DNA of 64,000 bases from Liolophura sinensis (Eukaryota; Mollusca; Polyplacophora; Chitonida; Chitonidae). Positions 1,273 through 64,000 of this stretch are shown piece after piece. Position 1 is the stretch's first letter, and each line of letters starts with the position of its first letter. The translations under genes were made by a program, and so were the position numbers. The stretch spans positions 34,329,608-34,393,607 of the forward strand of contig NC_088300.1 in assembly GCF_032854445.1 (NCBI RefSeq), in the 5' to 3' direction. The notes under the pieces were generated by a model that had not been told where the DNA came from, made no database searches, and saw nothing but the letters and a program-made list of their open reading frames with translations.

Positions 1273-3202
<1,930 letters not shown>

Positions 3203-34161: not shown

Positions 34162-34314
34162 ACAGCGCCATAAAATCTGGCCATTTTACGGATTCCACTG
34201 ATTCCAGTATTTGTCCACTCTTTCGATTGTGACAAAAATTGGGGCCTCAGCATCAATGAACTACCAGTATTCTATTTACCATGCAATTATTTATTTATTT
34301 CTTACTAAAGAAGT

Positions 34315-34425
34315 TCTCACTTTTTACAGTTTGATGGGTGGAGGAAACCGAAGTGCCTGTGGTAAAACACCGACCATTAGCAGGTTGCTGTCCACCATTT
34401 GCTCCACGACCTGTTTCATGTAATT
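34315..34425 (+). repeat. short repeat related to the SINE body, in three unit copies
   Basis: GATGGGTGGAGGAAACCGAA then AGTGCC and TTGCTGTCCACCATTTGCTC. Copies lie at 47846 and 62936, with a related module (GGGTGGAGGAAATCGGAGTG) in an EAAT intron at 36710 and 50104. Probably an old transposon fragment present before the duplication. Confidence 0.55.
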
Positions 34426-34664
34426 CCTAAAGTGCTATTTCAGTGAAAACTTCCTGTATCTGTGCGTCAAAACAGACATTCGTGTATCAGTCATCAACCA
34501 AAATGGACGTTCCGGGTCAATAATAGAGTTAAGGCCAATTCCCAAACGACGTTCAACACAAATACTTAGAAAATATATACAACACAAAATTAGGTCAGAT
34601 TTATTCAAAGAGAAGCGGTCAGTAGTTTTCAATGGGGATGAGAAAACGCAAGGGATGTTCTAGC

Positions 34665-34885
34665 CGAGTGAATCAGTGAGTGAGTGCTTGGGGTTTTACG
34701 TCGTGCTCAACAATTTTTTCAGTCATATGACGACGAAGAAATCCTTATGGTGTATGTAATGTGCCTCCTTGTTACAGGACGGATTTCCACCACTCTTCTA
34801 CCTAGTGCTGCGTCACTGAGACGACTTATCGAAGGCAAGTAGGCCGCCCCGCTCGAGCCATACGGGTCAACCAGTCGTTGGATAT
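34665..34885. mobile_element. SINE-like insertion present only in unit A
   Basis: AGTGAGTGAGTGCTTGGGGT followed by TTTACGTCGTGCTCAACAAT and GACGACGAAG resembles the 3' module of a molluscan SINE distinct from family 1. The flanks match B (about 48061-48190) and C (about 63240-63290), where this segment is missing. Confidence 0.55.
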
Positions 34886-35120
34886 TCTGTCAATATTTGC
34901 AAGAACTAAGGTACGGATGGCTCTTTGTCAACAGACATATTGAAGTGTCTTCCAAATCCAGCTGAGTTCCGCCATTGAAAACATCCTACAAATTAACTAT
35001 GACATTTTCATTGAAGTCTGTAGGTACAGGACAAATATTCACAGCCCAACCGTAAAAAAAAACCATAAAAACAAGTACACCTGACGTAAATAATTAGGGA
35101 ATTTCTTTGGGAGATACCGA

Positions 35121-35435
35121 TTGAGTCATTGTCAAGAAGAATTTTGGTGGGTGTACACGCAATTACCCTATTGGTCAGGAATTTCCTGGAGCAGCAATCT
35201 AAACATGCAGATCAGCCTTCAATACAGATCATTCATACTATGCCTTATTCTGGAGGCTGTCATGTGTCACCGGTTAAATCCTTTGTATGTCCTACACACT
35301 GGCTACTTCATCTCCATTTTTGTACCTGTGAACAAATTGTTTTGTATTGCTTATGTCGAGGAGAACCCCTTATTGGTTGCAGGTAATCCTCTTAATTCAA
35401 TTAGATCAGTTAACACCTACAAAGATTTTTACTAA
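35121..35435 (+). other. open reading frame conserved in the three unit flanks, status unknown
   Basis: Two overlapping plus-strand frames (104 and 85 residues here) recur at 48499-48992 and 63487-63879 with the same peptide core, LPYWSGISWSSNLNMQISLQ in one frame. They lie 3' of each EAAT gene and opposite in strand. No domain, signal or splice partner. Since both frames are equally preserved, recent duplication explains the conservation better than coding. Confidence 0.35.
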
Positions 35436-35682
35436 ATATATATATAACTTCTTTATTTCCACATTCAATACACATATCTGTCTTTTTCATAAAGCGAACA
35501 ATCTGTATAAAGATGAATCTTTCTTAACTCCCTGTTTGTCCTCTCAGCGTCGTCTTTCGCCATGGCAAAAAACCATGCAGATAGTGAAAGTCATTGTAAC
35601 CGACCTTGTTGACAGTCTGGTAACAGACAATTTGACATAACTTTTTAAAATATTAACCAGGTTATATTTCATTCACAACGCC

Positions 35683-35688
35683 TTTATT
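35683..35688 (-). terminator. AATAAA polyadenylation signal, EAAT copy A
   Basis: Minus-strand AATAAA about 210 nt downstream of the stop at 35897. The equivalent site is kept in unit B (49064-49069). Confidence 0.5.
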
Positions 35689-35896
35689 ATTCTGCATACG
35701 GCTTTTATGCAACTGAAGAGCGTTTTGTGTAAACGTCATATGTGCAATATCTTAGCCGTCCGTTTTAGAACTGCCTATGTGACTGTCCATGCATGAGACT
35801 ATCCACGTGGTTCTCTCAATTTCTAGTGTGTTTGTTGCTGTTTCCTGGATATCTTTAATTGATACACGTTTTTTAGCAAATACGCCTAGTCTTGTT

Positions 35897-38800
35897 TTAC
35901 GAAACGATATGTACAGGATGTAAGCCGTCCTCTTTGCCACTGTCCACGTGATTATCCACCTGACCTTCCCGATGAATGTCAAGGTTGCTGACCTTCACTT
36001 CATAAACCTCCTCGTCGAATTGCAATGGCGATAAATCGGATTTGCAGAATCTATACACTATGGCAGCACAGGCGGTGTGACTAAATAAATTACTTGTGCT
36101 TCTAATCCGATCCCTGAAACAATATAACAAAAATTTTAAAGATTTTAAGGTAGTTGTTGTTGTGGTCAATATTTATTTCAAGTGAGATAAACTTCAAACA
36201 GAGACACATTAGTAAAGAAAACCTGACAATGTGGAAAATTTTGCCGCCGACATACACTTGTTGAAAAAATTTTCTTTTTCCCCTTTTAAGAAAAAACATG
36301 AACACTCAAACAACGGAAAGTCAATAATTGGAATAATATTAAAAGAAAAAAAACAAGGAAATCGTGATTAAACAAGACTATACCAGTATGATAGAATGCC
36401 AATAAGAAAATGATCTACTTTCCTGACAGATATATTTACTTACAGAAACCATTCCACTGTGAAAAGAAATCCGATGGCCTCTGCAGGAATATTTATTGAT
36501 GACAGGATGACGACCAAAGTGACAATGCTGGAACTCGGTACGGAAGGAATGGCCAAGCCTGCCACTGTGGTCAACACGCTGCAAAGAAAAACGAAACTAA
36601 CCTAATGCAATCCTTCTTCAGCATATACTCTGCCTTTTTTGAATAATTAGATTGTTGTTTCACACGGTAGGGCAAATTTTCCCCCTTATATGGTGGCGAT
36701 CAGTTTTACGGGTGGAGGAAATCGGAGTGCCGGTCTAAACCTCCCGCATTTGGCAAGCTACTAACTTCCAACACATGATGTGCAGTTATGCAAAGAGTAT
36801 TAGTGGAAAATTTTCACCGGCCACAAATTAGAGTTGTCAACCATTTGTTGTCACCAAGTCCCTACAATAAAGCAGTGACAGCGACAGGGGAAAAAACTGA
36901 TTTCTAATTTAAGGGAAAGCAATTTAACCGACTTAAATTAGCATATAATGAATCAATCATCGAAAAAAAAGATACAAATAAAACCACACCAATTTTAACT
37001 TACACGACAATGATAGTAGTGCTGACGTCTGGTGAATTGCCAGTAACCGTGGCTACGAATAAAGCAGCCGCCGTGATATAGAGGGCGCTGCCATCGGCGT
37101 TCAGCGTGACACAGAATGGGACGACGTACCTGGACACTCTTTTGTCTATTTTGTTACTAACTTCACATGCGTGCAACATTTCTGGAATAGCGACTGCCCT
37201 GAAACCACCAAAGACATGTGTTCACATCCTGATTCCCAATATGATAACTTTATTTTGAGAACTTTAACACGAGGATAGTTTCGCGAAAGACAAGACAATA
37301 GTATAGAGGATTACCAAATGTTTTGTGTTGAAGTAGAAATAATGGTAACTTTTATACTATTGAGCAAAAGTAACCAATATATCAAATCTTTTACACATTG
37401 TCGACTATACAAGAGATGTAAGATTTGAATCACGAACAGGGCCCTCCATAAACTCTAAAATGTTAACAGCCAATCAGAAAAACCGCTTCACACTACTCAC
37501 GTGCTCGTGGCGGCAAAAGCGAGCATCCAGCCTCGCGATATGCTGAGAAGATACCGGTAGGGATTCCTGTGGGCCAATACGAACAAAATGAGGGCGATGA
37601 AGACGAGCTGGTGAATGACGATCCCTACAAACACGGTGAGAACAAAAAGTCCCAGTTGTACAAAGGTTTGTTCCAGATTTTCTATACCGGCCAAGGACAC
37701 GGTGATCAAGCTAAACACACCTAAGGGGGCGTACCTGCAATCGGAAAAAAAGAAAATCACGAAACACTTCAATTGAAATCACGAAGGTGTAGTTCAATAA
37801 TACATATGTTATCGTTGGGGACTTGTCCACCTAATGAAGCCCAACCCGAATCATTCCTGCCTTTGCCTTGTCGATTTGTGTAAGTCACCACTGGTGCGCT
37901 TAAGCGCAACGAATAGAGATTCCGCTCGGTCAAAGGGAGGGCACTCTAAGGTAAATTTTAAGTTATGCTGGTCCATTACCTGAAACCTTCTTACCTCCCC
38001 TGATCTAACTACATTCCAATCGTTTTAAGCGTCTGGACTAGTTATGCGAGTCTACGTTTAACATTATCCGATGAGTGAATGAATGATAACTAGGTTGGGG
38101 TTTTAATACCACACAGCCACAATTTCAGCTGTATCATGACAGAACATGTTAGAACAAAGAGCTAAGACTTTCTACACGAGAATCATACCCTCCAAAATTA
38201 GAAGAAACAAAAACCTTCTAAAACCTTAACATTATGAGAATCTGACCATATCGCGTCGGTGTGAAAAACAAACAAAAAAAAATACCCGAAATACTTTATG
38301 CAATATACAAAACATAACAAAAAATAACAAAACATATCCTTTGTCTTTATTGGCAATCATCCATTTCAGGTTCGGTGCTAGATCCACCATGTCTTATTGT
38401 ACGGGCATGTTTAATTAACAGGGTTGCTAGGCGCTGATGTGACCATTCCTCACCATAGCAACCATCTGAGCAGGATCAGTACAACTTCCGTGGCAGAGGT
38501 GAAGAAGCGCAGGAAGTGCTTGCCTTTCTCTTGACTGTTGTTGATGGCGATACCGATCAAAAGACATACTACTATTAAACCTGTGGGAAATAAGAGTTAT
38601 GATTTATATATCTATATATTTAGCTATATCAGAGATGAAAATCATTCTTAGCTCTGTATTTTGTAAGATATATATCAAGCCTGTGGGAAATAAGAATCAT
38701 GATTTATAGCAAATTCAAGAGACAATGAAGAATAAAAGGAGTTCGTTGACAGATTATGATTTTTGTTTTCGATTTTCACAAATATACGTAGATCTTCGCG

Positions 38801-39732
38801 TAAAATACAAATGGCAATGAATGATATAACAAGTTGGTTGATTGGTTATAGATTTTTTTATTCCTCGTTGTTCAGAAACGCCAGATTCTTGCCTATAAAT
38901 TAAAACGAAATTACACCGCTTCTGGTGATATGTTAGCAGGTGTTAATCTTTATTTTGTTAATCTTCTTTATTTTCTATTCCTAGGAGAAGATTGAGAGAT
39001 GGAGTACACAGACCGGAGACACTATGCACCACGACTTTGTGTGATTAAGTGTTGTTTGGAAACTGTTAGTATTTGAACACCATATATATTTATTTATTTA
39101 TTTAATTGGTGTTTTACGCCGTACTCAAGAATATTTCACTTATACGACGGCGGCCAGTATTATGGTGGTTGGAAACCGGGCAGAGCCCGGGGGAAACCCA
39201 CGACCATCTACAGGTTACTGGCAGACCTTTCCACGTACGGCCGGAGAGGAAGCTAGTATGAACTGAACACTATATATAATATGTTACACTCTTAACATGC
39301 ACAATTCGGCAAACTTGTTAGCGTTTTTGCTCACCTAGTATATTTGTCCCATCTGTTTTCCCCAAATATTTTGAGAAAGTGTACAGTTGGCTGCTTGTTG
39401 AATTTCCATCTGTCTCATTTGCTTTCATGGATTCAATTTCGTTCGCAATTTTCTTGTACTGCGTTTGAACCTTCATGTATCAGGAAGAGAAAAGTTGTTA
39501 TGGTTGCTTTATTCAAAACGTCTTGAATGTTAATGACAAAGAAATACCTTTTATACTGAAAGCATTTCTAAGTCAGTGATAACTATTACCTATGTAAGGA
39601 CTATGTAAAGGCCACTGCACTGTGGCGTTTATATGTTTATATGGCATACTTATTGTTCGAATGTGAAATGGAAGATAACAAAGGAAACGCTGAACAATCT
39701 GTCTGTGGTATAGTTATATGGCCATTCTATTC

Positions 39733-39821
<89 letters not shown>

Positions 39822-42800
39822 TGTTGTAAACGCTATATACTTGCAAAAGATACATTTTGACTATCAGGTGATAACATATTTTACATACCTGTTGGAAACA
39901 TGCCTCTACAATGTTATCGGGTACCAAGTTTCTGGAAAGTACAATAAAATCCTACATTCAACAGAAGAAAACTCAGCTTAAAAAAACAAAGGCTTATCTC
40001 ATTTTCAGATTCGTGGAGGTCGCTGAGAAGAATTAACATATCTCCCAGGACAGATGATTTTTTTTTTTTTTTTTGGATTGGTGTTTTACGCCGAACTCAA
40101 GAATATTTCACTTATACGACGGCGGCCAGCATTATGGTGGGTGGAAACCGGGCAGAGTCCGTCCATCCGCAGGTTGCTGACAGACCTTACCACTTACGGC
40201 CGGAGAGGAAGCCAGCATGAGCTGGACTTGAACTCACAGCGACCGAATTGGTGAGAGACTCCTGGGTCATTGCGCTGCGCTAGCGCGCTAACCGACTGAG
40301 CCACGGAGGCCCCACCCCCAACCAGGACAGATGAAGGCATAAGTTGGTTTTGGAGAAATTCTTTTATAGGCTGGAAGATTTGAAAATACCATAGAGCTAG
40401 TCTGAAACTTATTAATTGCGCATATTTCCTATTGAAAACGTATTTTCCAATTACTGTATTTCTAAAGGTTGGTATATGTAAAAATGCACTTTCAGAAGCG
40501 TATAATAGCTTTTATATGATACCTTTCATGTCAACACATCATTATTCTGAATCAAATGAATCCAACTTCACCAGAAAATCTTACATGGCCCAAAATCAAG
40601 GAATATGTGTTACTTGAATAATACTAAACTTTAGATGAGATATCAGTATGTCCTGTAACGGATATATATGGTATAGGTAAAGATTTTCTCATGTAACCTA
40701 CAATCCAAGGATATGTAAGCATTTTCTGCCGTTGAGAGACTATTGTTAATTTTTGACTGGTGTATTACTGAAATATGTCAGTAGAAACTGGTAAAATCTT
40801 ATAAAGCGATGTACCCTTTAAAATTCTTCAAACTGTATGTGGACAATTCAAAAGAGACATTTAGGCCAAGCACTGAATACAGTTGCACATAAACCTAACG
40901 CTCGCAGATGTATCCTTTATTCTATGCTTACCTCAGTAAGTCCGCAAAAATATCCTGCGTCTGTAACATCTGAGTTTTAACCGACTCCGTATTTTTCGTA
41001 TCCACAAAGCGTGCTGAAATAAACGTACATTTGCTTTGATTACTTTGATTTATTTATTTGATTAATGTTTTACACCGTACTCATATATCTCTTACGCGAC
41101 GACGGCCAGCTTCCTCAGCTCATGTCGCATGTAGCATGTCGCGCCCTGCTAGGGGAGGGATGTCACCATTCGGCTTCCATAAACATAAGAAAAGAAATAA
41201 GAAAATGTTTGGCCTGTACGTGTCTTCCATACATAGCAAAGAGATGACATGAACATCTATAGATGCACATCATTGTTGTTTATATTCGTGTATGCCCTAG
41301 CGCAATGTCGTACAGCAAGGACATCATGGAGAAACTAGACGTTTGTATGTAAGTACATGTAGACACAGCCCATATAAACATATTTACAATTACACGTGTA
41401 ATATCCAGTGCTGTAATCTATACTGTTTTCCTGATATCAATAAATGTTTGATAACGATGTTAGTATCAACATCAAAACGTCACCAGAAAATAAACACATC
41501 AGAACGATGTATGCATAAAGAATTTACACTGGCATTATTCCTACAATAACAGTATGAAGAGATATAGGAGTTATAGGTCAATATCGATAGGAAGAGAATT
41601 ATAGGTCAATATCTGATCATTGTTACATGAATATCTGTATACGAACATGCATTTTATTCATACGGTAATGAGTTTGACCCAACAGGAAGTTTGCATTTCG
41701 CCAAAAAATTTCAGAAAAAAGTCAAATTTTGAAAAACTGAGAGGAAATGCGTGATTACTCATATTTGACAGGCCTGTAAGCTGTGAATAGTACATATTTG
41801 TTAATAATAATATAAACATCGCAATGTTGGGATATAGGCACAAACGAGGCAGAAATGTAGTTCTTTCACGCTAACCATGTCAGCTGCAGTGCATGATATA
41901 CATTCTGTGTCGTACCTGGCAAACTAAGTGAGTCTTATATTAGGCAAAAAAAAACAAGATTTAATCGGCTACGATGTTAGTATACAGGCATACTCTAGCT
42001 ATAGGTGGAGTGTCATGTTTGGTATCTTCAAAGTCTCGTAAAAGTGAACCCAGCCTTTCATATTTATTTACTTATTTATTTATTTATTTATTTGGTGTTT
42101 TACGCTATATTCGTGTATATATTTCACTTATAGGACGGCGCCCACATTATATGGTGGGAGGAAGCCGGTCAGAACTCGGAGGAAACACACGAACTTCCGC
42201 AGGGTGCTGACAGACATCCCCATCGAAGAGGAAGCCAACATGAGCTGGATTTGAGCTTACAGCGATTGCATTGGTGTGAGGCTCCTTGGCACGCTTACCA
42301 CTCCCCTCCCAAAGCCTTTTATAAGTAATTTTTTTTAACAATATAGCTTGGTTGGTTAAATAATACTAACCTGGTTTGATAATTAATGTGAAGACCAGGC
42401 CTATAACACAGGACATGAAGTTCGTCAGGAGGCAGTACGTGAAGGCTATGGCGCTGATCTTCCCGTTTGATTTAGGGTTCAATGAGGCTGTGCCTGAGAG
42501 AAACAAAAAAAAAATATTATTTTATTTCATTTATTTATATTTACCAGTACATACATGATCTTATAAATATTTTATTGGTCAACAAAATATGTATACACTT
42601 ATATTGGCGTGATGAAAACCTCAGTTAAAAGGATTGTTTTATCCCATGTGTATCACATTCGAGGAAAAATATTTCATAAATGTATATGAATAATAAATTT
42701 CTCATGGCTATACACACGTACTACACACATAGAAATGACCAAAAGAATTTCGTTAAATCCTGGTAATGCCAGACAATATTTGTAAGGTCACTGGCTGGTC

Positions 42801-44349: not shown

Positions 44350-44404
44350 CCCTGAAAATATGGAGGTTAATATTAATATGTTTCAATCTGACACTAAGAC
44401 AATT

Positions 44405-44825
44405 ATGTTGAAAATAGTAAAACCAGTGGCTCGAATGAGATTCGAACCCACGGCTGTATATAGCTCCGCGGTACTACCGACCTATTCACATAGACACGTA
44501 AGCAGAAGCTGAAAACCATTCGTGAATGAACACAGCTTGAAAGCCACGAAACAGTTTTCCAGGCAACGTCAACATCTTATATAATGTTAGTTACAAATCT
44601 TGCTATCATCGCCTAAAAGCAAAAGTTATCCACAATCCTATTTTTCATCATTCTTCGTGAAAATGTCTTGGCATATAGGTAACAACTTCTTATACTCGTA
44701 AGGCCATAAGCGAGAAAAGTTAAGAAATATTAATTTGTACATTTTATGAAAGTTGATCCATTCTCAGAAAGCCTCGCGCTTTCTAGATTTGTTCCACGCT
44801 TAACACTCTTTGAGGACTCATCGAG
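44405..44825. other. segment present only in unit A, with tRNA-like relic
   Basis: The EAAT upstream region of A and B aligns on both sides (CTGACACT..AGACAAT and CAACTTTAAGC), but this 0.4 kb is missing from B. At about 44425-44490, minus strand, an A-box-like GGTCGGTAGTACC and a B-box-like GGTTCGAATCT are spaced as in a tRNA, suggesting a SINE head relic. Confidence 0.5.
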
Positions 44826-45027
44826 TCTTACAACTTTAAGCAAAATATGATATCCGGCACATATATGACGGCAAAACTCCAGTGTAAAAAAATACATCAG
44901 AAAGTTACAGAAGTTATCAATATGTTTATCTTTATAGAAGTACAAATACTATATGTAAAAATCAAAACATGGCTATACAAAATAAAATAATGGGCTCCCT
45001 GCATATGTAAGCCAATATGAGGCTTAC

Positions 45028-45235
45028 CCGCGAGAGAGACAAGAACTGAAGGGACCTATGACAGAGCACCGTGTGTGAATAACACTACAGCTGAAAGCTG
45101 TGAGAACAGGAGGGCTCTCTCCGCGAATGGCGGGTGCACTATCCGGTTTGAACCTAAAACCATATCCTGGTTTCCCGAGTGCAAAAAGTCTTGTAATGAC
45201 GCGTCGTGTCATGATGTCCGTTCCTGTGGAATCAC
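45028..45235 (-). other. candidate 5'UTR exon of EAAT copy A
   Basis: CTCGCGG|GTAAGCC is a good donor at 45028|45027, and the coding exon's acceptor (TATTTTCAG|GG, 44351) precedes the ATG by two bases, so a spliced leader exon must exist upstream. The same segment in B uses a donor 8 bp away (57085). The exon's 5' end is not defined. Confidence 0.4.
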
Positions 45236-45962
45236 TTAAGTTTTCAAATTAAAAGAGTGAAACTGAACTGCGTTATTCTTAAGCCTTCATAACAAGGTGA
45301 TAGTGACGGTGTAATTTCTAGAACTGTGTCATTTACAGATTACAATCTTCATTCTTGAAAGAAAATATACACGAGTTTAAATATTCAATGGATAAGGTTT
45401 GGCGCACTAATAAAAGAGTAAGACACGGAATAGAAAGTGCTGACTCATATTTAATGATGTGAAGGCATTAAAACCAGTATACAGCGTTGAGTTACATGTG
45501 TATAATAAACACTGCACAGTTGTGCTGAAATCATTGAAAATATCTTTGACAATGGAGATAAAGATGACTTTTCATTTAAATATCTGGTGTACGGTATATG
45601 ATGAAACTACTTTTATACGTTTTATGCTAATGATGACAATTAAGAGCTCTATTTTGTAGGAACCTATGTTCTTATTAAATGAAAAAGAGAAACGATGGCT
45701 GTATGTGGTTCTGGAATAACAGTTAATTCCAGAGGGCTTGAACCCTCTGTTGAGATTATAAATCATTGATTAGATTATACATCGTTGATCGTTGATTATG
45801 CGATTACATATACTGTTTTTCGTCTCCAATATTAACTGGCGTGCCTGTTCTAATGCTTCATGAACACATTATTATGCGATGTTCGTTTTTAACACGTGGA
45901 ATGGCTCTCTGTGTTGGTTTTAGTAGGCCTACGCCTTTCGTTGATTCTCATAAAACAGTAGA

Positions 45963-46060: not shown

Positions 46061-46069
46061 ATATTTGAA

Positions 46070-52581: not shown

Positions 52582-52669
<88 letters not shown>

Positions 52670-55600
52670 TGTTATAAACGTTATATACTTGCAAAAGGTA
52701 CATTTTGTGTATATAACTGATCAGGTGATAACGTATTTTACATACCTGTTGGAAACATGCCTCTACAATGTTATCGGGTACCAAGTTTCTGGAAAGTACA
52801 ATAATATCCTTACAGACTCCACAGAAGAAAACTTAGCTTAAGAAAATAAAGGTTTATATCAGACAGACAGACAGACGTAGACATAAATTCGTGTTGGAGC
52901 AATTGTTTTATATGTTGGAAATATTTTAAAATATCATAGAACGAGACTGGAACTTATTAATTACGGATATTTCCTATTGAGAACATATATTGGAATTAGT
53001 GTATTTCATCTAAAGGTTGGTATATGTACAAATGCACTTTCAGAAGCGTATAATAGCTTTTATATGATACCTTTCATGTCAACACATCATTATTCTGAAT
53101 CAAATGAATCAAACTTCACCAGAAAATCTTACATGGCCCAGAATCAAGGAATATATGTTACCTGAATAATACTAAACTTTAGATGATGTCGGATACGGAT
53201 ATATATGGTATAGGTAAAGATTCTCTGATGTAACCTACAATCCAAGGATATGTAAGCATTTTCTGCCGTTGAGAGACTATTGTTAACTTTTTACTGGTGT
53301 ATTACTAAAATGTGTCAGTAAAAACCCGTAAATTCTTATAAAGCGACGTATCCTTTAAAAATTTTTAAACCGTATGTGGACAATTCAAAAGAGACATTTT
53401 GGCCAAGCACTGAATATAGTCGCACATAAACCTAACGCTCACAGATGTATCCTTTATTCTATGCTTACCTTAGTAAGTCCGCAAAAATATCCTGCGTCTG
53501 TAACATCTGAGTTTTAACCGACTCCGTATTTTTCGCATCCACAAAGCGTCCTGAAATAAGCGTACGCTTGCTTTGATTACTTTGATTTATTTATTTGATT
53601 AATGTTTTACACCGTACTCATATATCACTTGTGCGACGACGGCCAGCTTCCTCAGCTCATGTCGCAAGTCGCGCCCCGCTAGGGGAGGGATGAGAAGTCA
53701 CCATTCGGCTTGCATAAACATAAGAAAAGAAATAAGAAAATGTTTGGCCTGTACGTGTCTTCCATACATAGCAAAGAGATGACATGAACATCTATAGATG
53801 CACATCATTGTTGTTAATATTCGTGTATGCCCTAGCGCAATGTCGTACAGCAAGGACATCATGGAGAAACTAGGCGTTTGTTTGTAAGTACATGTAGACA
53901 CAGCCCATATAAACATATTTAGAATTACACTTGTAATATCGAGTACTGTAATTTATACTGTTTTATCGAGGTCAATAAAAGTTTGATAATGATGTTAGTA
54001 TCAACATCAAAACGTCACCAGAAAATAAACACAAGAGTTGTTATCCATATAAACAATTCTTCGGTTTCTGTATATCGAATAGCGTCTATAAATATCTCTC
54101 AGAAAGAAGCGATATATGCATTGTTCATATTATAACAGTATGAAGAGACTTCAATTATAGGTCAATATCTGATCATTGGAACATGAATATCTCTATATCT
54201 GAAGATGCATTTTCTTCATACGCTAATGAGTTTGACCCAAGAAGAAGTCCGCATTTCGCAAAAGAAAATTCAGAAAAAAGTAAAAATTTTGGCATGAGAA
54301 AGTCAAAATTTCGGAAAGAAAAACTGAGAGGAATATAGGCACAAACGAGGTAGAAATGCAGTTCTTTCACGCTAAGCTATACTTTTGTGTTGTACCTGGC
54401 AAACGAAGTAAGTCTTTTATATTAGGGGAAAAAACAAGGTCTCAGCGGCGACGATATTAGTATACAGGCATACTCTAGCTATAAGTGGAGTATCATGTTT
54501 GGTATCTTGAAAGTCTAGTAAAAGTGAACCCAGCCTTTCATATTTATTTACTTATTTGTTTATTTGGTGTTTTACGCTGTATTCATGTATATATTTCACT
54601 TATACGACGGCGCCCAGCATTATATGGTGGGAGGAAACCGGTCAGAACTCGGAGGAAACACACGAACTTCCGCAGGGTGCTGACTGACATCCCCATCGAA
54701 GAGGAAGCCAACATGAGCTGGATTTGAGCTTACAGCGATTGCATTGGTGTGAGGCTCCTTGGCACGCTTACCACTCCCCTCCCAAAGCCTTTTATAAGTA
54801 ATTTTATTTAACAATATAGCTTTGTTGGTTAATTAATACTAACCTGGTTTGATAATTAATGTGAAGACCAGGCCTATAACACAGGACATGAAGTTCGTCA
54901 AGAGGCAGTACGTGAAGGCTATGGCGCTGATCTTCCCGTTTGATTTAGGGTTTAATGAGGCTGTCCCTGAGAGAAACAAACAAAACAAATATTATTTTAT
55001 TTCATTTATTTATATTTACCAGTACATACATGATCTTATAAATATTGTATTGGTCAACAAAAACATGTATACATTGATACTGGCGTGATGAAAACCCCAG
55101 TAAAAGGGTGGCTTTATCCCATATGTATCATATTCCGGGAAAATAATTTTCATAAATGTATATGAATAATAAATGTGTAACACAAGTCGTGGCTGTACAT
55201 ATTACAGACATAGTAATGACCAAAAGAATCACGTTAAATCCTGTTAATGCCAGAAAATATATTTTCGCTCACTGGGCTGGTCATATCATTTTCAGTTAAA
55301 CAAATTGGGCTACTAAACTGTAATAAAGAAGGAGATCGATAGTCATGTTGTCAAGATATAGTTGTTAAACCTGAATCGATTCAAACAAAACTGTCAACAG
55401 ATGTAACTCGCGTGGTATCAATGTCTTTGTGTCACACATATGGTGGAGGTGTTAGTTGGGTGTTTCACTGAGTTTTTTCAACAATTTATTGAGATAGAGA
55501 ACCGAACTCGTTAATAACTGGCAGTACCAGCAGTACACAAATTGTGTAATCCATGCAGTACATCCACATTGAGTTGTGTATATATGTGTGCTGACAGTCT

Positions 55601-56832
55601 CTCACAGGAGTCTCTCACCAATGCGGTCGCTGTGAGTTCAAGTCCAGCTCATGCTGGCTTCCTCTCCGGCCGTACGTGGGAAGGTTTTCCAAAATCCTGC
55701 GGATGGTCGTAGGTTTTCCCCGGGCTCTGCCCGGTTTCCTCCCACTATAATGCTGGTCGCCGTCGTATAAGTGAAATATTCTTGCGTACGGCGTAAAACA
55801 CCAATCAAATAAATAAATAAATACATCTTTATACAAGACTGCTATTAAAGATGTTTACTCACGAATGACCTACCCATGTGGAATCAACCATACAGATTCT
55901 TTGTAATATCTTGATTTCTAGTACATGTAAGTTCATTTAACCACATTAGATGAGTACGCCTAGATAATCTCTGACCATCGAAAGTGTAAACTGATCTAAT
56001 TCGCCTAGTGCAATGGTAAAGGTACGAGTCTAAGACAACTTACCTGAGATCACACTACATATGATAAGCGGTAGAATCAGCATCTTCAACAAACGCAGGA
56101 AAATTTCCCCAGGTAAACCTGTACAGAACAAAGTACAAAGGAGCGACAGAATTTAACCCCTAAAGATGAAAATTTTCTGATAATTATCAAAGTTACAATA
56201 CCGACATTATTTTCGGCCAGAGCCTCGGAATGAATAACTCGTGCGTTTGGATTATATTCAGGACAAAGTCTGGAGTTTTCGTGAAACCTTTAATTAAAGT
56301 TAGTAAAAAATCAGCTATTAAAACTATTCTTTACAAGTTCGAACTATAAAACATAGAGTATAGTATAGAGTATAGTACTAAGTTGCATCGGATTCTTTAA
56401 ACCAGTTCGTGGCAGCTTCTGACTGGAAACGGTCATTTTTGGCAGCTGTGAAATCCCTGTTAATGTTTATATCACGTTTCTACAGAGGATATGACATTGG
56501 TTCAAGAACAAATCTGTTTTGCACAATAAACATGTGAGAAGAGGGTCAACGACAAGCAATAGGCAGCTATGCGAACTTCACAATCATTTTTCTTGTTTCT
56601 TACCTAGCCACATCCTGGCATCTGATGACAGATTCAACGGCCTGACTGCAAACCCGATGGCAATACCTAATAGAATGCCACCAACCGTTAAGATCAACAG
56701 TAAGTTGTTCTGCACACGCCCTTTACATCCCGAATTGTTCCGGCTCGATTTCGGCTTGTTTTCCGATTTGTTGTTGTAAACAGGAGCCTCGGTAGATCCC
56801 CGCAGTGGTTCGTTCTCCATTTTGAAAGTCAT
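49286..56832 (-). CDS. SLC1/EAAT-family amino-acid transporter, copy B (11 coding exons)
   Basis: Paralogue of copy A. Coding exons: 56832-56604, 56118-56044, 54966-54844, 53550-53469, 52788-52746, 52356-52221, 51953-51827, 51137-50904, 50591-50397, 49967-49833, 49502-49286. Every exon has exactly the length of its copy-A counterpart, all splice sites are intact and the product is again 531 residues. Substitutions are few (e.g. SGCKGRV for SGCTGRV, INKSQEKG for INNSQEKG, YTPLG for YAPLG, SRFVV for SRYVV, SPLQLDEEV for SPLQFDEEV). The same unusual core residues as in A are kept: NADGS, IPSVPSSSIVT in HP2, and DRIRSTSNVFSH in TM8 with His in place of the sodium-site Asp. Introns differ more by indels and insertions than exons do. 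Sharing of flanks suggests both copies are regulated alike unless the minisatellite expansion upstream matters. Confidence 0.93.
52586..52665. repeat. (TA)n microsatellite in EAAT-B intron
   Basis: About 40 TA units, homologous in position to 39735-39817. Confidence 0.98.
53584..53648 (-). mobile_element. SINE family 1 3'-end fragment shared by both units (copy in B)
   Basis: Same truncated copy as at 41047 in unit A. Confidence 0.75.
54541..54778 (-). mobile_element. old diverged SINE family 1 copy shared by both units (copy in B)
   Basis: Same element as at 42062-42305 in unit A, with nearly the same substitutions. Confidence 0.8.
55590..55826 (+). mobile_element. SINE family 1 in EAAT-B intron
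   Basis: Starts inside the tRNA-like head (CTCTCACCAATGCGGTCGCT, then GAGTTCAAGTCC), has a complete body and an (AAAT)n tail at 55808-55826. The reading frames on the minus strand across it are repeat-derived. Confidence 0.9.
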
Positions 56833-57084
56833 CCCTGAAAATATAGAGATTAATTCGCATTCTGACACTGAGACAATCGATTTGGCAACTTTAAGCGAAG
56901 TATGATATCCGGTACTTATATGACGACAATACTCCAGTATAAAAATAAATAAATCCAAAAGTTACAGAAGTTACCAATATGTTTATCTTTATAGAAGTAC
57001 AAATACAATATGTAAAAATCAAAAGATGGTTGTACAAAATAAACCAATGGGCTCCCTGTATACGTAAGCTAGGATGAGGCATAC

Positions 57085-57310
57085 CTGCTTCACCGCGAGA
57101 GAGACAAGAACTGAGGGGACCTATGACAGAGCACCGTGTGTGAATAACACTACAGCTGAAAGCTGTGAGAACAGGAAAGGCTCCTCTCCGCGAATAGCGG
57201 GTGCACTCTTCGGTTTGAACCTTAAACAATATCCTGGTTTCCCGAGTGCAAAATGTCTTATAATGACGCATCGTGTCATGATGTCCGTTCCTGTGGAATC
57301 GCTTATCTAA
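57085..57310 (-). other. candidate 5'UTR exon of EAAT copy B
   Basis: Homologous to 45028-45235. Donor AAGCAG|GTATGCC at 57085|57084. Compared with A, an 8-bp segment (TGCTTCAC on the plus strand) is present here, which shifts the donor. The 5' end is not defined. Confidence 0.4.
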
Positions 57311-57984
57311 TTAAATAAGCGAATTTGAACTGTGTTATGGTTAAGCCTACATAACGAAGTGATAGTGACGGAGGGATTTTTGGAGCTACGTCATTAACAG
57401 ATTAAATCAGCCATTCATGAAAGAAAATATGTACGAGTTTAAATATGAACTTTACAAGATCCGGCGCACAAATAAAAGAGCAAGGTCACGCAATAGAAAG
57501 TGCTGACTCATGTTTAGTGATGTGAAGGCATTAAAACCCGTATACAGCGTTGGGTTATATGTATATAATAAACACTGCACAGTTATGCTAAAATCATTGA
57601 AAATATCTTTGACAATGGAGATAAAGATGACTTTTCATTCAAATATCTGGTGTACGGTATATGATGAAACTACTTTTATACGTTTTATGCTAATGATGAG
57701 AATTAAGAGTTGTATTTTGTAGGAGCCTATACTCTTATTAAACGAAAAAGAGAAACGATGGATGTATATTCTGAAATAACAGTTCATTCCAGAGCGTTGA
57801 ACCCGGATCTAGATTATACACCGTTGATCCGCCATCATTACATACACTGTTTTTCGTCTCCAGTATTAACTTGCGTGCTTGTTCTAATGCTTCATGAACA
57901 CATTATTATGTGATGTTCGTTTTTAACACGCGGAATGGCTCTCTGTGTTGGTTTTAGTAGGCCTACGCCTTTCGTTGATTCTCA

Positions 57985-58372
57985 TAAAACGGTTGAAATA
58001 CTTTATAGCTTTCTCCATAGATATAGGTAAATACTTTGTAGCTTTCTCCATAGATATAGGAAAATACTTTATGCCTTTCTCCATAGATTTAGGAAAATGC
58101 TTTATGCTTTTCTCCATATATATAGTAAAATACTTTATAGTTTTCTCCATAGATATGGGAAAATACTTTATAGATTTCTCCATAGATATAGGAAAATACT
58201 TTATAGCCTTCTCCATAGATATAGGAAAATACTTTATGGCTTTCTCCATAGATATAGGAAAATACTTTATACCTTTCTCCATAGATGTAGAGAAATACTT
58301 TGTACCTTTCTCCATAGATATAGGAAAGTACTTCATAGCTCTCTCCATAGATATAGGCAAATACTTTATTGC
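57985..58372. repeat. 33-bp minisatellite, about 12 copies (unit B)
   Basis: Same unit as at 45963 in A (CTTTCTCCATAGATATAGGA plus AAATACTTTATAG) with scattered substitutions. The 33-bp period is 11 codons, which keeps frames open on both strands: a 232-residue minus frame reading KYFPISMEKAI repeats and 150- and 120-residue plus frames. Repeat-only translation, not a supported gene. Confidence 0.93.
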
Positions 58373-58624
58373 TCCATCTCCTGCAGATATTCTTTGAACA
58401 TTCTGGCTGAAGAGACTCATGTCAGCTTGATCGTCATATATAAAGAGAAATTTATTTGAATACCAGGCTAAAACACCAGTCATATACATAAATGTACATA
58501 GAAAAGGTATATAAGTAAATACATACATAGATAAATATGTGAAAAATGGAAAGATGAAAATGTCTATATAAAACTTACAAATGATGAACAAGCTGAAATA
58601 ACTTCTGAGAAATAGACACATGCT

Positions 58625-60231
58625 CAGACATTTTTCAGATCGTGTGTAAATGTAGGTTTCAGCTTTTGAAATTTGAAATTGATTTCTTCGATTCTGGATT
58701 GGTCGCGTCCATTATGTTCATTATAGAAAAGAAAGTGTGTATCCTGTAGCTTTTTTCGCTGTATAGTCTCCTATCCACCTGCATATATCATATACCGGTT
58801 GTGTCACAGGGGCGCTACACATTCCTGTAAAGTTTCCATTAGTGCCACAATTTTGCCATATCCGGTGTGTCGTTGACCAACATGATTGACACAATCTTCA
58901 ACCAACCAACTTGTCAGTGCCGGGAATAAACCAGCAACCTTTGGTAGAATACGCAACAGAACTGATCAAGATGGAGCATGCTTATGACCTACAGACTTGT
59001 CCACCATATTGCATGGGGGAAGACATGCATTTGTTCTATAACGTCAGAGTGCACAAAAACCTCAAAAGCTTTATAGTCAGCACGGAATCATGAACATCAA
59101 TTTTGGGAAAATCGAGAAATTCCTGTCCAAGATCATCGAAAATCAGTCACTATGAACGTTTACATAACAAAATTTTCTCATGCATGAAAAATATTGTCAA
59201 ATCAATGATATTTAGAGCAGATTTTCTGGAAAATAATACATTATTTCCGTGCAGCTAAATTTATTTGGGGCTTTTATAGATACATATATACCGCCTTATT
59301 AGCAAAATATTGTGATACTTAAAAACACAGTTTTTTTTAAAATATATTCACTTCCATCGATTTGAGACATTTATAAACAGCCCGACATATTAGCAAAATA
59401 TTGGCAGCTCAGTATATAATATTTCAATACATTTGTTTTTTGTTTTGTGTTTGTTGTGTGAGTCATTTAAGCACACAATTCGCCTCTTTCTTCATCTAAA
59501 CCGGATGCCGGGCGTTAAAGTGGCATCCCGAATTAAAACTTATACAGTTTTCATCACGTGAAGTTAATTTTTGATTACAGATATTTATACTGGTATTGGC
59601 GTTCAGAATTCACAATGACAAGTGCAACCAGTAATGAAATGATAAAAACTTAGATAACGTTACGATCTGGCCTATATACAGATTCACTCTGTGCACGATC
59701 GAAAAGAGTTTGTGGATGACTGACTTCAGTGCTGTGTATTTTTTTTTTATTTGTTTCTTACAGTGAAGAGTAACGTTGACTTGCGCATTTCCGCCTGTTA
59801 CACAAGTCAAGAATTTACTCTACCAGTTGATCTACATGTAGCTAAGGGCTATTACATACATGTATATAGGGCGTCTATGTTGTACGTGATAACCCATTCG
59901 CTTTTCATGCATATAATGACACAAATTGAGCCTTAAACCTGTCGAACTGGAAGTTGTTAGCTAATTGCTATAGGGTTATGCTAATGAAGGCTGAATGACA
60001 CGGACTTCACTCAGCTTCACGTCTCACCACTACAAGTGTAGAGATTTCAGGCCAACATAAAGGGTTTGTCATGTACGTTAAGTAGGTAATTAAATATCAT
60101 TCAAGGGGTGGTGGTGAGGAAGTAGCCGTCATCATGATCAGATATAGACCATTGAAAAAATATATCTAAATTGCCTATTTAAGTTAAATATTTTTTTTTT
60201 TACTTTTTGGAAAACAATTAAATGTATTTTT
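58625..60231. other. unit B-specific gene-free stretch
   Basis: No counterpart in unit A. The reading frames at 58911-59093 and 59610-59936 have no domain. Confidence 0.45.
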
Positions 60232-60246
60232 TATAAGGAGAGGGCA

Positions 60247-60497
60247 GTCGGTTAGCGCGCTAGCGCAGCGTAATGACCCAGGAGCTTCTCACCAATGCGG
60301 TCGCTGTGAGTTCAAGTCCAGCTCATGCTGGCTTCCTCTCCGGCCGTAAGTGGGAAGGTCTGTCAGCAACCTGCGGATGGTCGTGGGTTTCCCCCAGGCT
60401 CTGCCCGGTTTCCACCCACCATAATGCTGGCCGCCGTCGTATAAGTGAAATATTCTTGAGTACGGCGTAAAACACCAATCAAAAGAATAAATAAAAA
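60247..60497 (+). mobile_element. SINE family 1, young copy with target-site duplication
   Basis: Starts in the head (GTCGGTTAGCGCGCTAGCGC), B-box-like GAGTTCAAGTCC, complete body close to the window consensus, short AAAT tail. Flanked by an exact 15-bp duplication TATAAGGAGAGGGCA (60232-60246 and 60498-60512). The first about 15 bases of the head are missing. Confidence 0.93.
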
Positions 60498-60728
60498 TAT
60501 AAGGAGAGGGCATATTGATAGTGCTTGGTGTCAAGTGTTTTTTTAACCTTTACGTTTGAGAATTGACAAAGCGTATTGAAGTGTAGGCATAATGTTCGCT
60601 ATAATATATACACATAAATATGGCTATATTCCGACATTTAAGGGCTAAGAAGACACTGGCTGTCACCATTATATCAATATACGTTTCATACAACACATCT
60701 TAGAATTCATAATATATAAATGTATTAA

Positions 60729-60842
60729 AATTCCCCTGAGTTCTAAGAGCCACGTGGTTTCATCTCTGCCTCAATGCACATTTCTATTATTAACGCTGTT
60801 CTTCCTTTATAGCCTTCTTTTGACGAAACCGGTAAGGGTCTT
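60729..60842. repeat. local direct duplication, copy 1
   Basis: AGAGCCACGTGGTTTCATCT, CTGCCTCAATGCACATTTCT through CGGTAAGGGTC. Homologous to 61486-61599. Confidence 0.8.
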
Positions 60843-60916
60843 TATGATATTGGTTACTGGAAATGATACTGGAACAGCTGCATATGTATATATGAGCTTT
60901 CATTTGACGTACCGCA

Positions 60917-60937
60917 CATACACACACACACACACAC

Positions 60938-60990
<53 letters not shown>
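60917..60990. repeat. (CA)n followed by (TA)n microsatellite
   Basis: About 11 CA units, then about 24 TA units. Confidence 0.97.
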
Positions 60991-60991
<1 letters not shown>

Positions 60992-61485
60992 CTTAATTCT
61001 ATAGAAGAAAAGTTTTGTTGTTGAAACTGAAACTTGGTAAACTTGAGGACGTTTGTCTTTGATATTTGATATTTGTCCTACATATATACAAATTCCCCCC
61101 ATGCCCAAGGGCGGTTTTGAACACCATATGTGTTCAGTATATGTTTTTTTTTTAGTAAAATGTAAAAGTTTTGCTTCACATACACATGACCATAATCTAT
61201 ATTATTATTAAAAATGATTACATTTTACTTACACAACTGATATATACGAACACCTTCCTGCGTTTATGGCAAATCTGATCCCGTGGTATATATATTGCCC
61301 ATATGTGGCCGGTCTCAGCGCAGCTGCATGCAGGGTTAGCAGATGTATTGAGGCATCCGAGGGCGGGGCAATGCACTAAACCGAACTATATATAGTGGAA
61401 CATATAGCTGAAACGTCAAGTCATTGCCTGGATTATTCTTTCGCTATTTATGTATAATAAAAACTTCACTCCGCAAAATCTTGCC

Positions 61486-61599
61486 CAGCATAAATTCCCC
61501 TTACCTCTAAGAGCCACGTGATTTCATCTCTGCCTCAGTGCACATTTCTGTTATTGACGCTGTTGTTCCCCTATAGCCTACTTATCGACATCGGTAAGG
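61486..61599. repeat. local direct duplication, copy 2
   Basis: AGAGCCACGTGATTTCATCT through CGGTAAGGGCC, about 757 bp after copy 1 with roughly one substitution per ten bases. Confidence 0.8.
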
Positions 61600-61744
61600 G
61601 CCTATGTACTAATAGACAGGCCACAGGGGTAAACAAACGAATGCTGACGATGTGTTGCATCATATCCGCTTGCGCTGTGCACTTTTACAGTGTTGTGTGA
61701 TTTACTGGGGGTTTTTTTTTTCAGATATCTACCTTAATTGGTTT

Positions 61745-61922
61745 TACTTGCTCATGCTGACTTCCTCTCCCGCCGTACCTGGAAACCTCCAGATGATCGT
61801 GGGTTTCCTCCGGATTCAGCCCGGTTTCTTCACACCACAATGCTATAGCCGAAGTCGCATAAGTGAACTATTAGATCTTGAGTGCGGCATGTAACAAGTC
61901 AAATAAATAAATAAATAAATCA
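61745..61922 (+). mobile_element. old SINE family 1 fragment
   Basis: TTGCTCATGCTGACTTCCTC, GATGATCGTGGGTTTCCTCC, a diverged GTGAACTATT..TTGAGTGCGG block and an (AAAT)n tail. Confidence 0.75.
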
Positions 61923-61929
61923 AAACACC

Positions 61930-62763
61930 CTTGACATATGCCGTTATATCGTCACTTCTATGTACATATCGTCGTATATATTTGGTAGAAAACAGAGTAA
62001 GATGATATTTTGACAATTAACTCCGTCTTTCATACGCCATCTCAGGGAGGAAATATATTTTCCGTTTTATTAATAATTTCATCCCAATAATGTAGGTGTT
62101 AATCATATAAGTAAAATATGCACTATACATGTATCGAAGCACCGCGGACACGTGAGTTCGGTACCATTCCTGGCCCATTTTCATAGCATACTATTGAGGA
62201 GAATTAGCTTCCAACAAACATAAATTTAAAAAGAATGGAATGAATTAAAACTAATATAAACACATTTCGCTCATGAGATATAGTAATGTTGCATAACAAA
62301 AATTAATCCATACATACACATTCTGCCAAACACTCCATTATTTGTTTATACGTCATGACGTACTATTGCATCATCTCAACTTTCTTTATAAGTAGGCATA
62401 AGTCTCAATTTGTTTACAGGCGCTTTTGTGGGGTTTTTTTTCAGATTCACTTGCTCATGTGTTATACAGCTGTGACGTAATTAACACCGCTTGCATCACA
62501 CTTGCACTTCTCGATCTGTAAACAAGTCAGTCTAGACTCTCGACTGAGAGGCTCCTACCTTATACCCAAGTGCGCAGTCATGGTCGATCAATAAGCCGTT
62601 CGTGGGCGGAGTTTGTATACACGTGCTACATGTATACATGTACGTGTAATCTGCGGTCATTGAGTGCAGGAGTGTATGTACGTAAATACTATACACTCTC
62701 ATTATCTTACATACATTAACACTCATATTCTGTACTACAGATCGTATAGGGCCTAATTCAAGA
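61930..62763. other. right end of unit B, no gene
   Basis: 62468-62690 matches 47177-47480 of unit A. The 107-residue minus frame at 62532-62855 crosses the unit junction and has no domain. Confidence 0.5.
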
Positions 62764-64000
62764 ACAGCGCCATAAAATCTGGCCATTTTACGGATTCCAC
62801 TCATTCCAGTATTTGTCCACTCTTTCGATTGTGACAAAAATTGGGGCCTATGCATCTATGAACTACCAGTATTCTATTTACCATGTAATTATTTATTTAT
62901 TTTTTACTGAAGAAGTTCTCACTTTTTAACAGTTTGATGGGTGGAGGAAACCGAAGTGCCTGTGGTGAAACACCGACCATTGGCAGGTTGCTGTCCACCA
63001 TTTGCTCCACGACCTGTTTCATGTTATTCTTAAAGTGCTATTCAGTAAAAATGCCTTGTATCTGCGCGTCAAAACAGACATTTGTATATCAGTCATCAAC
63101 CAGAATGGACGCTCCGGGTCAATAATAGAAATTAAAGCCATTTCCCAAACGACGTTCAACACATACAGAATATATACAACACAATATTTGGGCAGATTTA
63201 TTCAAAGAGAAGCGGTCAGTAGTTTTCAATGAGGATAGAAAGACGCAAGGAATGTTCTAGTCGAGTGAATTAAATCAGCTCTGCCACTGAAAACACCCTA
63301 AAAATTAACTATAACATTTTCATTGGAGTCTGTAGGTACAGGACAAATATTCATATCCCAACCGTAAAGAAACATAAAAACAAGCTATACAATGGAGCTC
63401 GCCAGGTGTGAGCACCTGTAGTTACTTCCATCGAGTTGAGGCAATTTCTTTGGGAGATACCGATTGAGTCATTGCCAAGATGAACTTTGGTAGGATTTTT
63501 ATTTGTTTGTTTATTTTTATTTCTTGTCGGAAATAACACAAGAAGTTCACCCAGATGGACTATGACAGTGGGCATTAGGTCGGAGTACACGCAATTACCC
63601 TATTGGTCAGGGATTTCCTGGAGCAGCAATCTAAACATGCAGATCAGCCTTCAATACAGTTCATTCATACTATGCCTTATTCTGGAGGCTGTCATGTGTC
63701 ACCGGTTAAATCCTTTGTATGTCCTACACACTGGCTACCTCATCCGTATTTTTGTACTTGTGTACAAATTCCTTTATTATTTATTAGTATTAGTTTATTA
63801 TTATTTATTTAGTATTATTTATATCGAAGAAAACCCCTTACTGGTTGTGGGTAATCCTCTTAAAATAAGTAAGGAATGAAATTAAATCAGTTATCACGTA
63901 CAAAGATTTTTACTACATATATGTACAACTTCTTCATTTCCACATTCGATATACAAATCTTTCTTTTTCATAACAATCAGTATAGAGACGGACCTTTCTT
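62764..64000. repeat. tandem segmental duplication, unit C (truncated by window end)
   Basis: Starts at ACAGCGCCATAAAATCTGGC and follows unit A/B in order: the GATGGGTGGAGGAAACCGAA module (62936), the ATGGAGCTCGCCAGGTGTGA segment (63391; present in B, lost in A), the flank reading frame (63487-63879) and TTTTTACTACATATATGTAC (63907). In A and B the EAAT stop codon follows about 1.6-1.7 kb after the unit start, so the third gene's stop is expected about 400-500 bp beyond this window. Confidence 0.88.

What the first reader, a model, noticed from the sequence alone, without database searches (positions are those of the whole stretch)
34162..64000. Head-to-tail array of SLC1/EAAT transporter genes with at least three units
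The junction word ACAGCGCCATAAAATCTGGC recurs at 34162, 47675 and 62764, and each interval repeats the same order of flank, 11-exon EAAT and minisatellite. Two complete 531-residue genes with every splice site intact and identical exon lengths show that both copies are being maintained. The third unit starts inside the window, so the array continues to the right. Seen directly for A and B; the third gene is a prediction.
Basis: partly seen in the sequence, partly recalled or inferred. Interest (0 to 1): 0.85.

Follow-up and report, generated by a model that had tools for sequence, protein, structure and literature searches.

The report
Three-gene array of odd glutamate-type transporters
A chiton (a marine mollusc) carries three intact side-by-side copies of a glutamate-transporter-like gene whose proteins have lost several of the amino acids that tie such transporters to sodium, protons and potassium, so they may well run on a different energy source than ordinary glutamate transporters.

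Summary
The junction word occurs exactly at 34162, 47675 and 62764. Units A and B each carry a complete 11-exon, 531-residue SLC1 gene on the MINUS strand with identical exon lengths. In the adjoining scaffold the third gene is present and intact (window-extended 72216-64385); unit C ends near 76.5 kb, and three is the count found. Unit C lacks the minisatellite. The assembly is the chiton Liolophura sinensis; units differ by about 10% in introns against 1.24% reported heterozygosity, so split haplotypes are very unlikely. The copies are under purifying selection and show a mosaic expected of gene conversion. The more interesting point lies in the proteins. With two C3 genes they form a deep SLC1 clade (100/100) in which the Na1 aspartate is His (5 of 5; Asp in 12 of 12 other SLC1 genes found), NMD is NAD or SAN (NMD in 12 of 12 others), and the H+/K+ glutamate is Ile (that site is Glu in only 4 of 12 others). 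Substrate-binding Asp, Arg and Asn are kept. They are SLC1 proteins but probably not ordinary Na+/H+/K+-coupled EAATs. Function is inferred, not tested.

The parts
34162..47674 (.). Unit A of the array (13,513 bases)
   Evidence: junction words; self-alignment
47675..62763 (.). Unit B of the array (15,089 bases)
62764..64000 (.). Start of unit C as far as it lies in the window: 3' flank of gene C; unit goes on to about 76,525 in window-extended coordinates (C6:34,406,132)
35897..44349 (-). Gene A, SLC1 transporter, coding part from ATG to stop (531 aa)
44121..44349 (-). Gene A exon 1 (coding)
43573..43647 (-). Gene A exon 2
42371..42493 (-). Gene A exon 3
40932..41013 (-). Gene A exon 4
39889..39931 (-). 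Gene A exon 5
39335..39470 (-). Gene A exon 6
38454..38580 (-). Gene A exon 7
37501..37734 (-). Gene A exon 8
37004..37198 (-). Gene A exon 9 (end of HP1 and TM7)
36444..36578 (-). Gene A exon 10 (HP2)
35897..36113 (-). Gene A exon 11 (TM8, C-terminus, stop)
37075..37101 (-). Gene A TM7 motif N383-A-D-G-S-A-L-Y-I391 in place of NMDGTALYE of EAAT3
   Evidence: position by arithmetic
36077..36079 (-). Gene A codon of H472, the position of the Na1 aspartate (D455 of EAAT3, D405 of GltPh)
   Evidence: position by arithmetic
49286..56832 (-). Gene B, SLC1 transporter, coding part (531 aa)
56604..56832 (-). Gene B exon 1 (coding)
56044..56118 (-). Gene B exon 2
54844..54966 (-). Gene B exon 3
53469..53550 (-). 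Gene B exon 4
52746..52788 (-). Gene B exon 5
52221..52356 (-). Gene B exon 6
51827..51953 (-). Gene B exon 7
50904..51137 (-). Gene B exon 8
50397..50591 (-). Gene B exon 9
49833..49967 (-). Gene B exon 10
49286..49502 (-). Gene B exon 11
50468..50494 (-). Gene B TM7 motif NADGSALYI
   Evidence: position by arithmetic
49466..49468 (-). Gene B codon of H472
   Evidence: position by arithmetic
45962..46061 (.). 33-bp minisatellite of unit A (3 copies)
57996..58373 (.). 33-bp minisatellite of unit B (11.5 copies); not found in unit C

Best explanation
Three head-to-tail copies of one SLC1 gene arose by tandem duplication (most likely unequal crossing-over) in a chiton and have since exchanged patches by gene conversion while all three stayed intact. 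Each encodes a 531-residue SLC1 protein expected to fold as a trimeric elevator amino-acid transporter. The residues that hold the amino acid (D444, R447 and N451 of EAAT3) are kept, but ion-coupling residues are changed: the Na1 aspartate D455 is His, the NMD methionine is Ala, Y98 and T102 near Na3 are Cys and Asn, D440 is Glu, and the H+/K+ glutamate E374 is Ile. I infer that the proteins still bind and move an acidic amino acid but no longer run the 3 Na+ : 1 H+ : 1 K+ cycle; they would work as exchangers, as weakly or differently coupled carriers, or, with His472 as proton site, as proton-linked ones. Shown: gene structure, copy number, selection, residue changes, clade. Inferred: fold, substrate, coupling.
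For: Gene models and copy number. Unit limits. Selection: dN/dS 0.24 (A-B), 0.36 (A-C), 0.41 (B-C); Fisher p 2.5e-6, 5.9e-5, 4.2e-4. Mosaic: 474 runs of informative sites against 599.8 (sd 14.3) in shuffles, 0 of 5000 as low. Family: Pfam SDF 300.7 bits; nearest solved protein EAAT2, E 4.2e-92. Residues: Na1 position His in 5 of 5 C6+C3 genes, Asp in 12 of 12 other SLC1 genes found; NMD in 12 of 12 others, NAD in 3 of 3 C6, SAN in 2 of 2 C3; Y98 changed in 5 of 5, kept in 9 of 9 others with that exon in hand, of 12. Clade C6+C3 supported 100/100 with a long stem. Literature (passages): D405 coordinates Na1 in GltPh, and D455A, D455S, D455N, D368N and E374Q lock EAAT3 in exchange (PMC3958442); E374 and the NMD motif serve H+/K+/Na+ coupling (PMC10160106); the Met is conserved in all known Na+-coupled SLC1 (PMC8431971); characterised H+-coupled bacterial members are changed at GltPh positions 92, 311 and 405 (PMC12668577).
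Against: No transport data. [quoted passage not shown] In C6 the Na3 side chains N366, D368 and T101 are kept. HP1 Ala at S334 means nothing: EAAT2 has Ala there too. E374 is Glu in only 4 of the 12 other SLC1 genes (Phe 5, Gln 2, Leu 1), and T102 is Leu in 4 of the 9 others seen, so those changes alone are not special to this clade. dN/dS of 0.36-0.41 is looser than one expects of a strongly constrained transporter. No structure was predicted.
Confidence: 0.6

Rival explanations
1. Ordinary Na+-coupled EAATs in a tandem array: the residue changes shift affinity but the proteins still take up glutamate with Na+.
For: Whole-protein match to EAAT2 and EAAT3; D444, R447, N451, N366 and D368 kept in C6; single-site data in PMC3958442 and PMC8431971 show that Na+ binding or stoichiometry can survive loss of D455 or Met.
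Against: Na1 Asp, NMD Met, E374, Y98 and T102 are all changed together, fixed in all three copies, while Na1 Asp and NMD are kept in 12 of 12 other SLC1 genes found in the same genome.
Confidence: 0.2
2. Non-transporting SLC1 proteins: the copies serve as anion channel, substrate sensor or partner subunit that occludes or tunes other SLC1 trimers.
For: Loss of coupling residues with kept substrate pocket; purifying selection; 12 other SLC1 genes that keep Na1 Asp and NMD could do uptake.
Against: Nothing in the sequence points positively to this; substrate-binding residues would not need to be kept for a pure channel.
Confidence: 0.15
3. A, B and C are uncollapsed haplotypes or an assembly artefact.
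For: HiFi reads average 8,347 bases at 14X (PMC11068029), shorter than one unit; the same assembly holds a concatemer of mitochondrial copies.
Against: Introns about 10% different in every pair against 1.24% heterozygosity and purge_dups in the published assembly; three, not two, versions in one 104-kb stretch without N; at the threshold used, the flanks just outside the array share only dispersed repeats with the region.
Confidence: 0.02
4. One or more copies are decaying pseudogenes.
For: dN/dS for pairs with C is 0.36-0.41; 12 of the 36 A-C and 12 of the 39 B-C amino-acid differences lie in exon 11.
Against: All three have full frames and all splice sites; nonsynonymous changes are significantly rarer than synonymous ones in every pair.
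Confidence: 0.05

Closest known systems
EAAT2 / SLC1A2 and EAAT3 / SLC1A1 (solved: 7xr4, 6x3e)
   Same: Full-length colinear match, 37% and 35% identity over 452 anchored columns; substrate residues D444, R447, N451; Ala at S334 as in EAAT2
   Different: D455 to His, M367 to Ala, E374 to Ile, T370 to Ser, S331 and S333 to Thr, Y98 to Cys, T102 to Asn, D440 to Glu
H+-coupled bacterial SLC1 relatives (GltP of E. coli, GltT and DctA of Bacillus) as described in PMC12668577 (passages)
   Same: Change at GltPh positions 311 and 405, two signature positions of the Na+-to-H+ switch
   Different: Here His instead of Asn at 405, Ala instead of Leu at 311, T92 kept, S279 is Ala and not Glu; animal gene nested among EAATs
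The two C3 SLC1 genes of the same genome (exon matches from C3:12,626,976 to 12,644,837 minus and 12,671,099 to 12,685,284 plus)
   Same: Sister clade (100/100), 54% and 51% identical over 383 and 423 columns, same His, TST in HP1, GS, Ile and EW signature
   Different: NMD is SAN (also loses N366 and D368), Y373 is Phe, Y98 is Ile; head-to-head pair rather than head-to-tail array
SLC1 tandem clusters on C7 of the same genome (four and three genes by exon sets)
   Same: Tandem SLC1 clusters in this genome
   Different: Keep NMD and the Na1 Asp in 7 of 7

Membership tests
SLC1 / sodium:dicarboxylate symporter (Pfam PF00375) | Full-length profile match above curated cut-off | tested here: met
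   gene A: 300.7 bits against cut-off 27.9, profile 2-386 of 387
EAAT (Na+/H+/K+-coupled glutamate transporter) | Substrate residues D444, R447, N451 (EAAT3) | tested here: met
   D461, R464, N468 in all three C6 genes
EAAT (Na+/H+/K+-coupled glutamate transporter) | Na1 aspartate D455 | tested here: not met
   His472 in A, B and C
EAAT (Na+/H+/K+-coupled glutamate transporter) | NMDGT motif in TM7 | tested here: not met
   NADGS in A, B and C
EAAT (Na+/H+/K+-coupled glutamate transporter) | H+/K+ glutamate E374 | tested here: not met
   Ile391 in A, B and C
EAAT (Na+/H+/K+-coupled glutamate transporter) | Na+-driven concentrative glutamate uptake | not testable with these tools
   needs expression and uptake or current assays
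H+-coupled SLC1 of bacteria | Signature [T/S]92 to hydrophobic, M311L, D405N, with S279E as putative proton site | tested here: not met
   T92 kept, M311A, D405H, S279A by alignment to EAAT3 and the residue table of PMC3958442
Tandem gene array | Head-to-tail homologous units in one gap-free stretch, each with an intact gene | tested here: met
Split haplotypes | Divergence near heterozygosity | tested here: not met
   about 10% intron divergence against 1.24%

The most novel reading that the evidence does not exclude
An animal SLC1 subfamily has left Na+/K+ coupling altogether, by changes at some of the positions used when bacterial members went from Na+ to H+ coupling, with a histidine placed at the old Na1 site as a possible proton switch; the C3 sisters went further and lost the Na3 asparagine and aspartate too, so the genome preserves two stages of the loss.
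Probability: 0.3. Interest if true: 0.75.

Novelty: new variant of a known kind. Interest (0 to 1): 0.5.

Why it matters
How ion coupling in glutamate transporters is gained or lost has been approached through reconstructed bacterial ancestors (PMC12668577, passages). Here are five animal genes in one genome (three of them shown intact end to end), set among 12 other SLC1 genes that keep the Na1 aspartate and NMD. In all five the Na1 carboxylate and the H+/K+ glutamate are replaced, in two also the Na3 aspartate, while the substrate pocket stays. They can be expressed and measured directly. The array by itself is an ordinary case of tandem duplication with gene conversion.

Tried and rejected
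Haplotype or assembly artefact: rejected on divergence, copy number and gap-free sequence. A longer array to the right: rejected. A first guess for exon 4 (A 41484-41443) was wrong because it is missing from unit C; the right exon is 41013-40932. My first reading of HP1, noted, as GGFR... came from intron bases read in frame and was dropped once the splice site was placed. Mosaic test on all columns mixed in stretches that are not homologous; repeated on columns with at least 80% local identity in all pairs, 8114 of 9898. dS between C6 and C3 or other SLC1 genes is saturated, so no dN/dS is given for those. Rfam on the window at gathering threshold: 0 matches. Structure prediction was not run: a spliced protein is not a letter-for-letter translation of window DNA, which the tool asks for. 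Whether other molluscs have this subfamily could not be tested: no other animal genomes are held. Tree: 377 columns anchored on gene A, 16 of 19 rows; C4, C11a and C11b were left out for gaps. C3 and other SLC1 rows are pieced from tblastn stretches of exons, so residues next to introns can be wrong (for example the D444 column of C7a1 and C11b, read from intron bases). The C3 genes were not modelled exon by exon to the last base. Literature searches for a description of such a subfamily. Titles and abstract starts of the listed papers only; listings were 4 of 4, 13 of 13, 1 of 1, 1 of 1, 12 of 13, 20 of 5,155 and 20 of 24. None listed announced one, but only open-licence papers are held and whole texts were not read. 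Duplication of SLC1 is reported in deep-sea clams (PMC7826175, passage).
Full report
OBSERVATION. The 20-base junction word is present exactly at 34162, 47675 and 62764 and nowhere else in the window with up to 3 mismatches; none turned up in 100 shuffles. Self-BLAST shows units A and B alike at about 85-94% over most of their length, less in a few pieces, and the start of a third unit from 62764.

GENES. The genes run right to left, which the finding does not say. Gene A is 44349-35897 and gene B 56832-49286. A non-coding 5' exon upstream of the ATG exon is likely (an AG precedes the ATG by two bases) but was not sought.

THIRD UNIT. The window is C6:34329608-34393607 of a 609-Mb genome. Adding 40 kb of the same scaffold (overlap with the window identical and no N in 103,993 bases) shows a third complete gene at window-extended 72216-64385 (C6:34393992-34401823) with the same 11 exon lengths and 531 aa (its exon 10 has a TAG acceptor where A and B have CAG). 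Homology of the unit ends near 76525. The C6 matches listed by a whole-genome protein search all lie in these three genes. The 33-bp minisatellite of A and B is not found in unit C, so flank, gene, minisatellite is not the rule for all units.

NOT HAPLOTYPES. The assembly can be named: 632 sequences, with C1 of 96,433,062, C7 of 60,359,117, C11 of 32,819,725, C3 of 27,489,247 and C4 of 25,057,479 bases, equal five published scaffold lengths of the chiton assembly in PMC11068029 (passages seen), whose species was corrected to Liolophura sinensis in PMC12441733 (whole text seen). C6 is 82,489,547 against 82,493,220 published for scaffold_2, and the total 609,464,459 against 609,495,693; I cannot explain these small differences. 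The mitochondrial frames around cox1, which I read by eye as nad3-nad2-cox1-cox2 on one strand, fit a mollusc; names and gene order there are recalled. Reported heterozygosity is 1.24% and haplotigs were purged. Introns of A, B and C differ by about 10% in every pair (0.896, 0.899, 0.901 identity).

EVOLUTION OF THE ARRAY. dS is 0.070 (A-B), 0.088 (A-C) and 0.082 (B-C); dN/dS 0.24, 0.36 and 0.41; rarity of nonsynonymous change is significant in each pair. The three pairs are nearly equidistant (0.925, 0.920, 0.925 on 8114 well-aligned of 9898 columns), but the nearest pair changes along the unit: 900 informative sites fall into 474 runs against 599.8 (sd 14.3) in shuffles, 0 of 5000 as low, longest run 14 (6 of 5000 as long). 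This is what gene conversion or repeated unequal exchange leaves.

WHAT THE PROTEINS ARE. Pfam gives SDF, 300.7 bits for gene A; the nearest solved proteins are EAAT2 (E 4.2e-92) and EAAT3. By my count of exon sets the genome holds at least 17 SLC1 genes: C6 three, C3 two, C7 four and three, one each on C1, C4 and C14, and two on C11, one of these taken as a single gene of over 50 kb. A tree of 16 of 19 rows (17 chiton genes plus EAAT2 and EAAT3; C4, C11a and C11b left out for gaps) puts C6 with C3 at 100/100 on a stem of 0.63; C1 groups with EAAT2 (96.9/99).

THE UNUSUAL PART. Using the residue table of PMC3958442 (passages seen) on alignments to EAAT3, all three C6 proteins have Cys at Y98, Asn at T102, Thr at S331 and S333, Ala at S334, Ala at M367, Ser at T370, Ile at E374, Glu at D440, Ser at T448 and His at D455, and keep T101, S332, T364, N366, D368, Y373, D444, R447 and N451 (one search corrects the HP1 labels). 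The C3 pair shares the His, Glu, Ile, Asn and TST pattern and in addition has SAN for NMD, Phe at Y373 and Ile at Y98. The Na1 position is Asp in 12 of 12 other SLC1 genes found and NMD is kept in 12 of 12; Y98 is kept in 9 of 9 others with that exon in hand. Other sites are less constant elsewhere: E374 is Glu in four, Phe in five, Gln in two and Leu in one of the 12, T102 is Thr in five and Leu in four of nine, and S331 and S334 vary. So what marks this branch is the Na1 His, the lost Met and the Y98 change together; they are shared by five genes at two places and are not noise of one copy.

HOW IT PROBABLY WORKS. In EAATs, Na1 and Na3 binding sets the NMD loop and frees R447 for the substrate, and E374 carries the proton and takes part in K+ coupling (PMC10160106, passages). 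D455A, D455S, D455N, D368N and E374Q lock EAAT3 in exchange, and in simulations Na1 leaves when D455 is protonated or, in two of three chains, replaced by Asn (PMC3958442). The Met is conserved in all known Na+-coupled members (PMC8431971, passages). Characterised H+-coupled bacterial members differ at positions 92, 311 and 405, with a putative proton site at 279 (PMC12668577, passages). From this I infer that the C6 proteins keep the amino-acid pocket and the elevator fold but not the 3 Na+: 1 H+: 1 K+ cycle. Exchange or facilitated transport is my first choice; a proton-linked cycle using His472 is the bolder one. Against: D455N has little effect on Na+ affinity, Met mutants of GltTk keep the stoichiometry, and N366 and D368 are kept in C6.

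VERDICT. The array is real and, as an array, ordinary. The ion-site losses make it a new variant of a known family and a good test object. I score interest 0.5.

Noticed in passing
G000:C3:12626976-12644837 (minus) and 12671099-12685284 (plus); loci L025-L027, L030, L031, L035-L037: Two sister SLC1 genes, head to head, with SAN in place of NMD and His at the Na1 position; a 200-N gap lies in one of them.
   Followed up: yes
G000:C7:9085015-9146896, also C4 (L033) and C11 (L034): A four-gene SLC1 cluster on C7 and single genes on C4 and C11 keep NMD and the Na1 Asp but have Phe or Leu at the H+/K+ glutamate and Glu or Asp at the first HP1 serine (exon-end residue in C4 uncertain): perhaps another branch with changed coupling.
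   Followed up: partly
G000:C7:8327403-8366508: A three-gene SLC1 cluster; two of the three have Gln at the H+/K+ glutamate.
   Followed up: partly
G000:C99 and C632: C99 holds seven cox1 copies at about 15.5-kb steps, a concatemer of the mitochondrial genome; C632 (15,209 bases) is a single mitochondrial contig.
   Followed up: partly
window 13997-14449 +: Open frame with a p8/NUPR1 nuclear phosphoprotein domain (E 7.1e-24; only 5 of the 71 left-hand frames were scanned).
   Followed up: no
window 26980-27378 -: Exon-like frame with an LDL receptor class A domain (E 4.6e-6).
   Followed up: no
window 3095-3442 -: Possible first exon of an Arf-type GTPase (weak, below cut-off).
   Followed up: no
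window 9503-9799 -: Fragment with weak reverse transcriptase similarity (below cut-off).
   Followed up: no
window 30032-30792 and 31038-31484: Two minisatellites left of the array, 20 bp x 38 and 19 bp x 23.5; the 2-kb stretch holding them has a GC skew of -0.415.
   Followed up: no
window 10243-10504, 39080-39268, 40059-40298, 55605-55821, 60245-60497 and others: A dispersed element of about 200-260 bp in both orientations, several copies inside introns and spacers of the array; copies in introns 4 and 6 of gene A may help explain intron length differences.
   Followed up: partly
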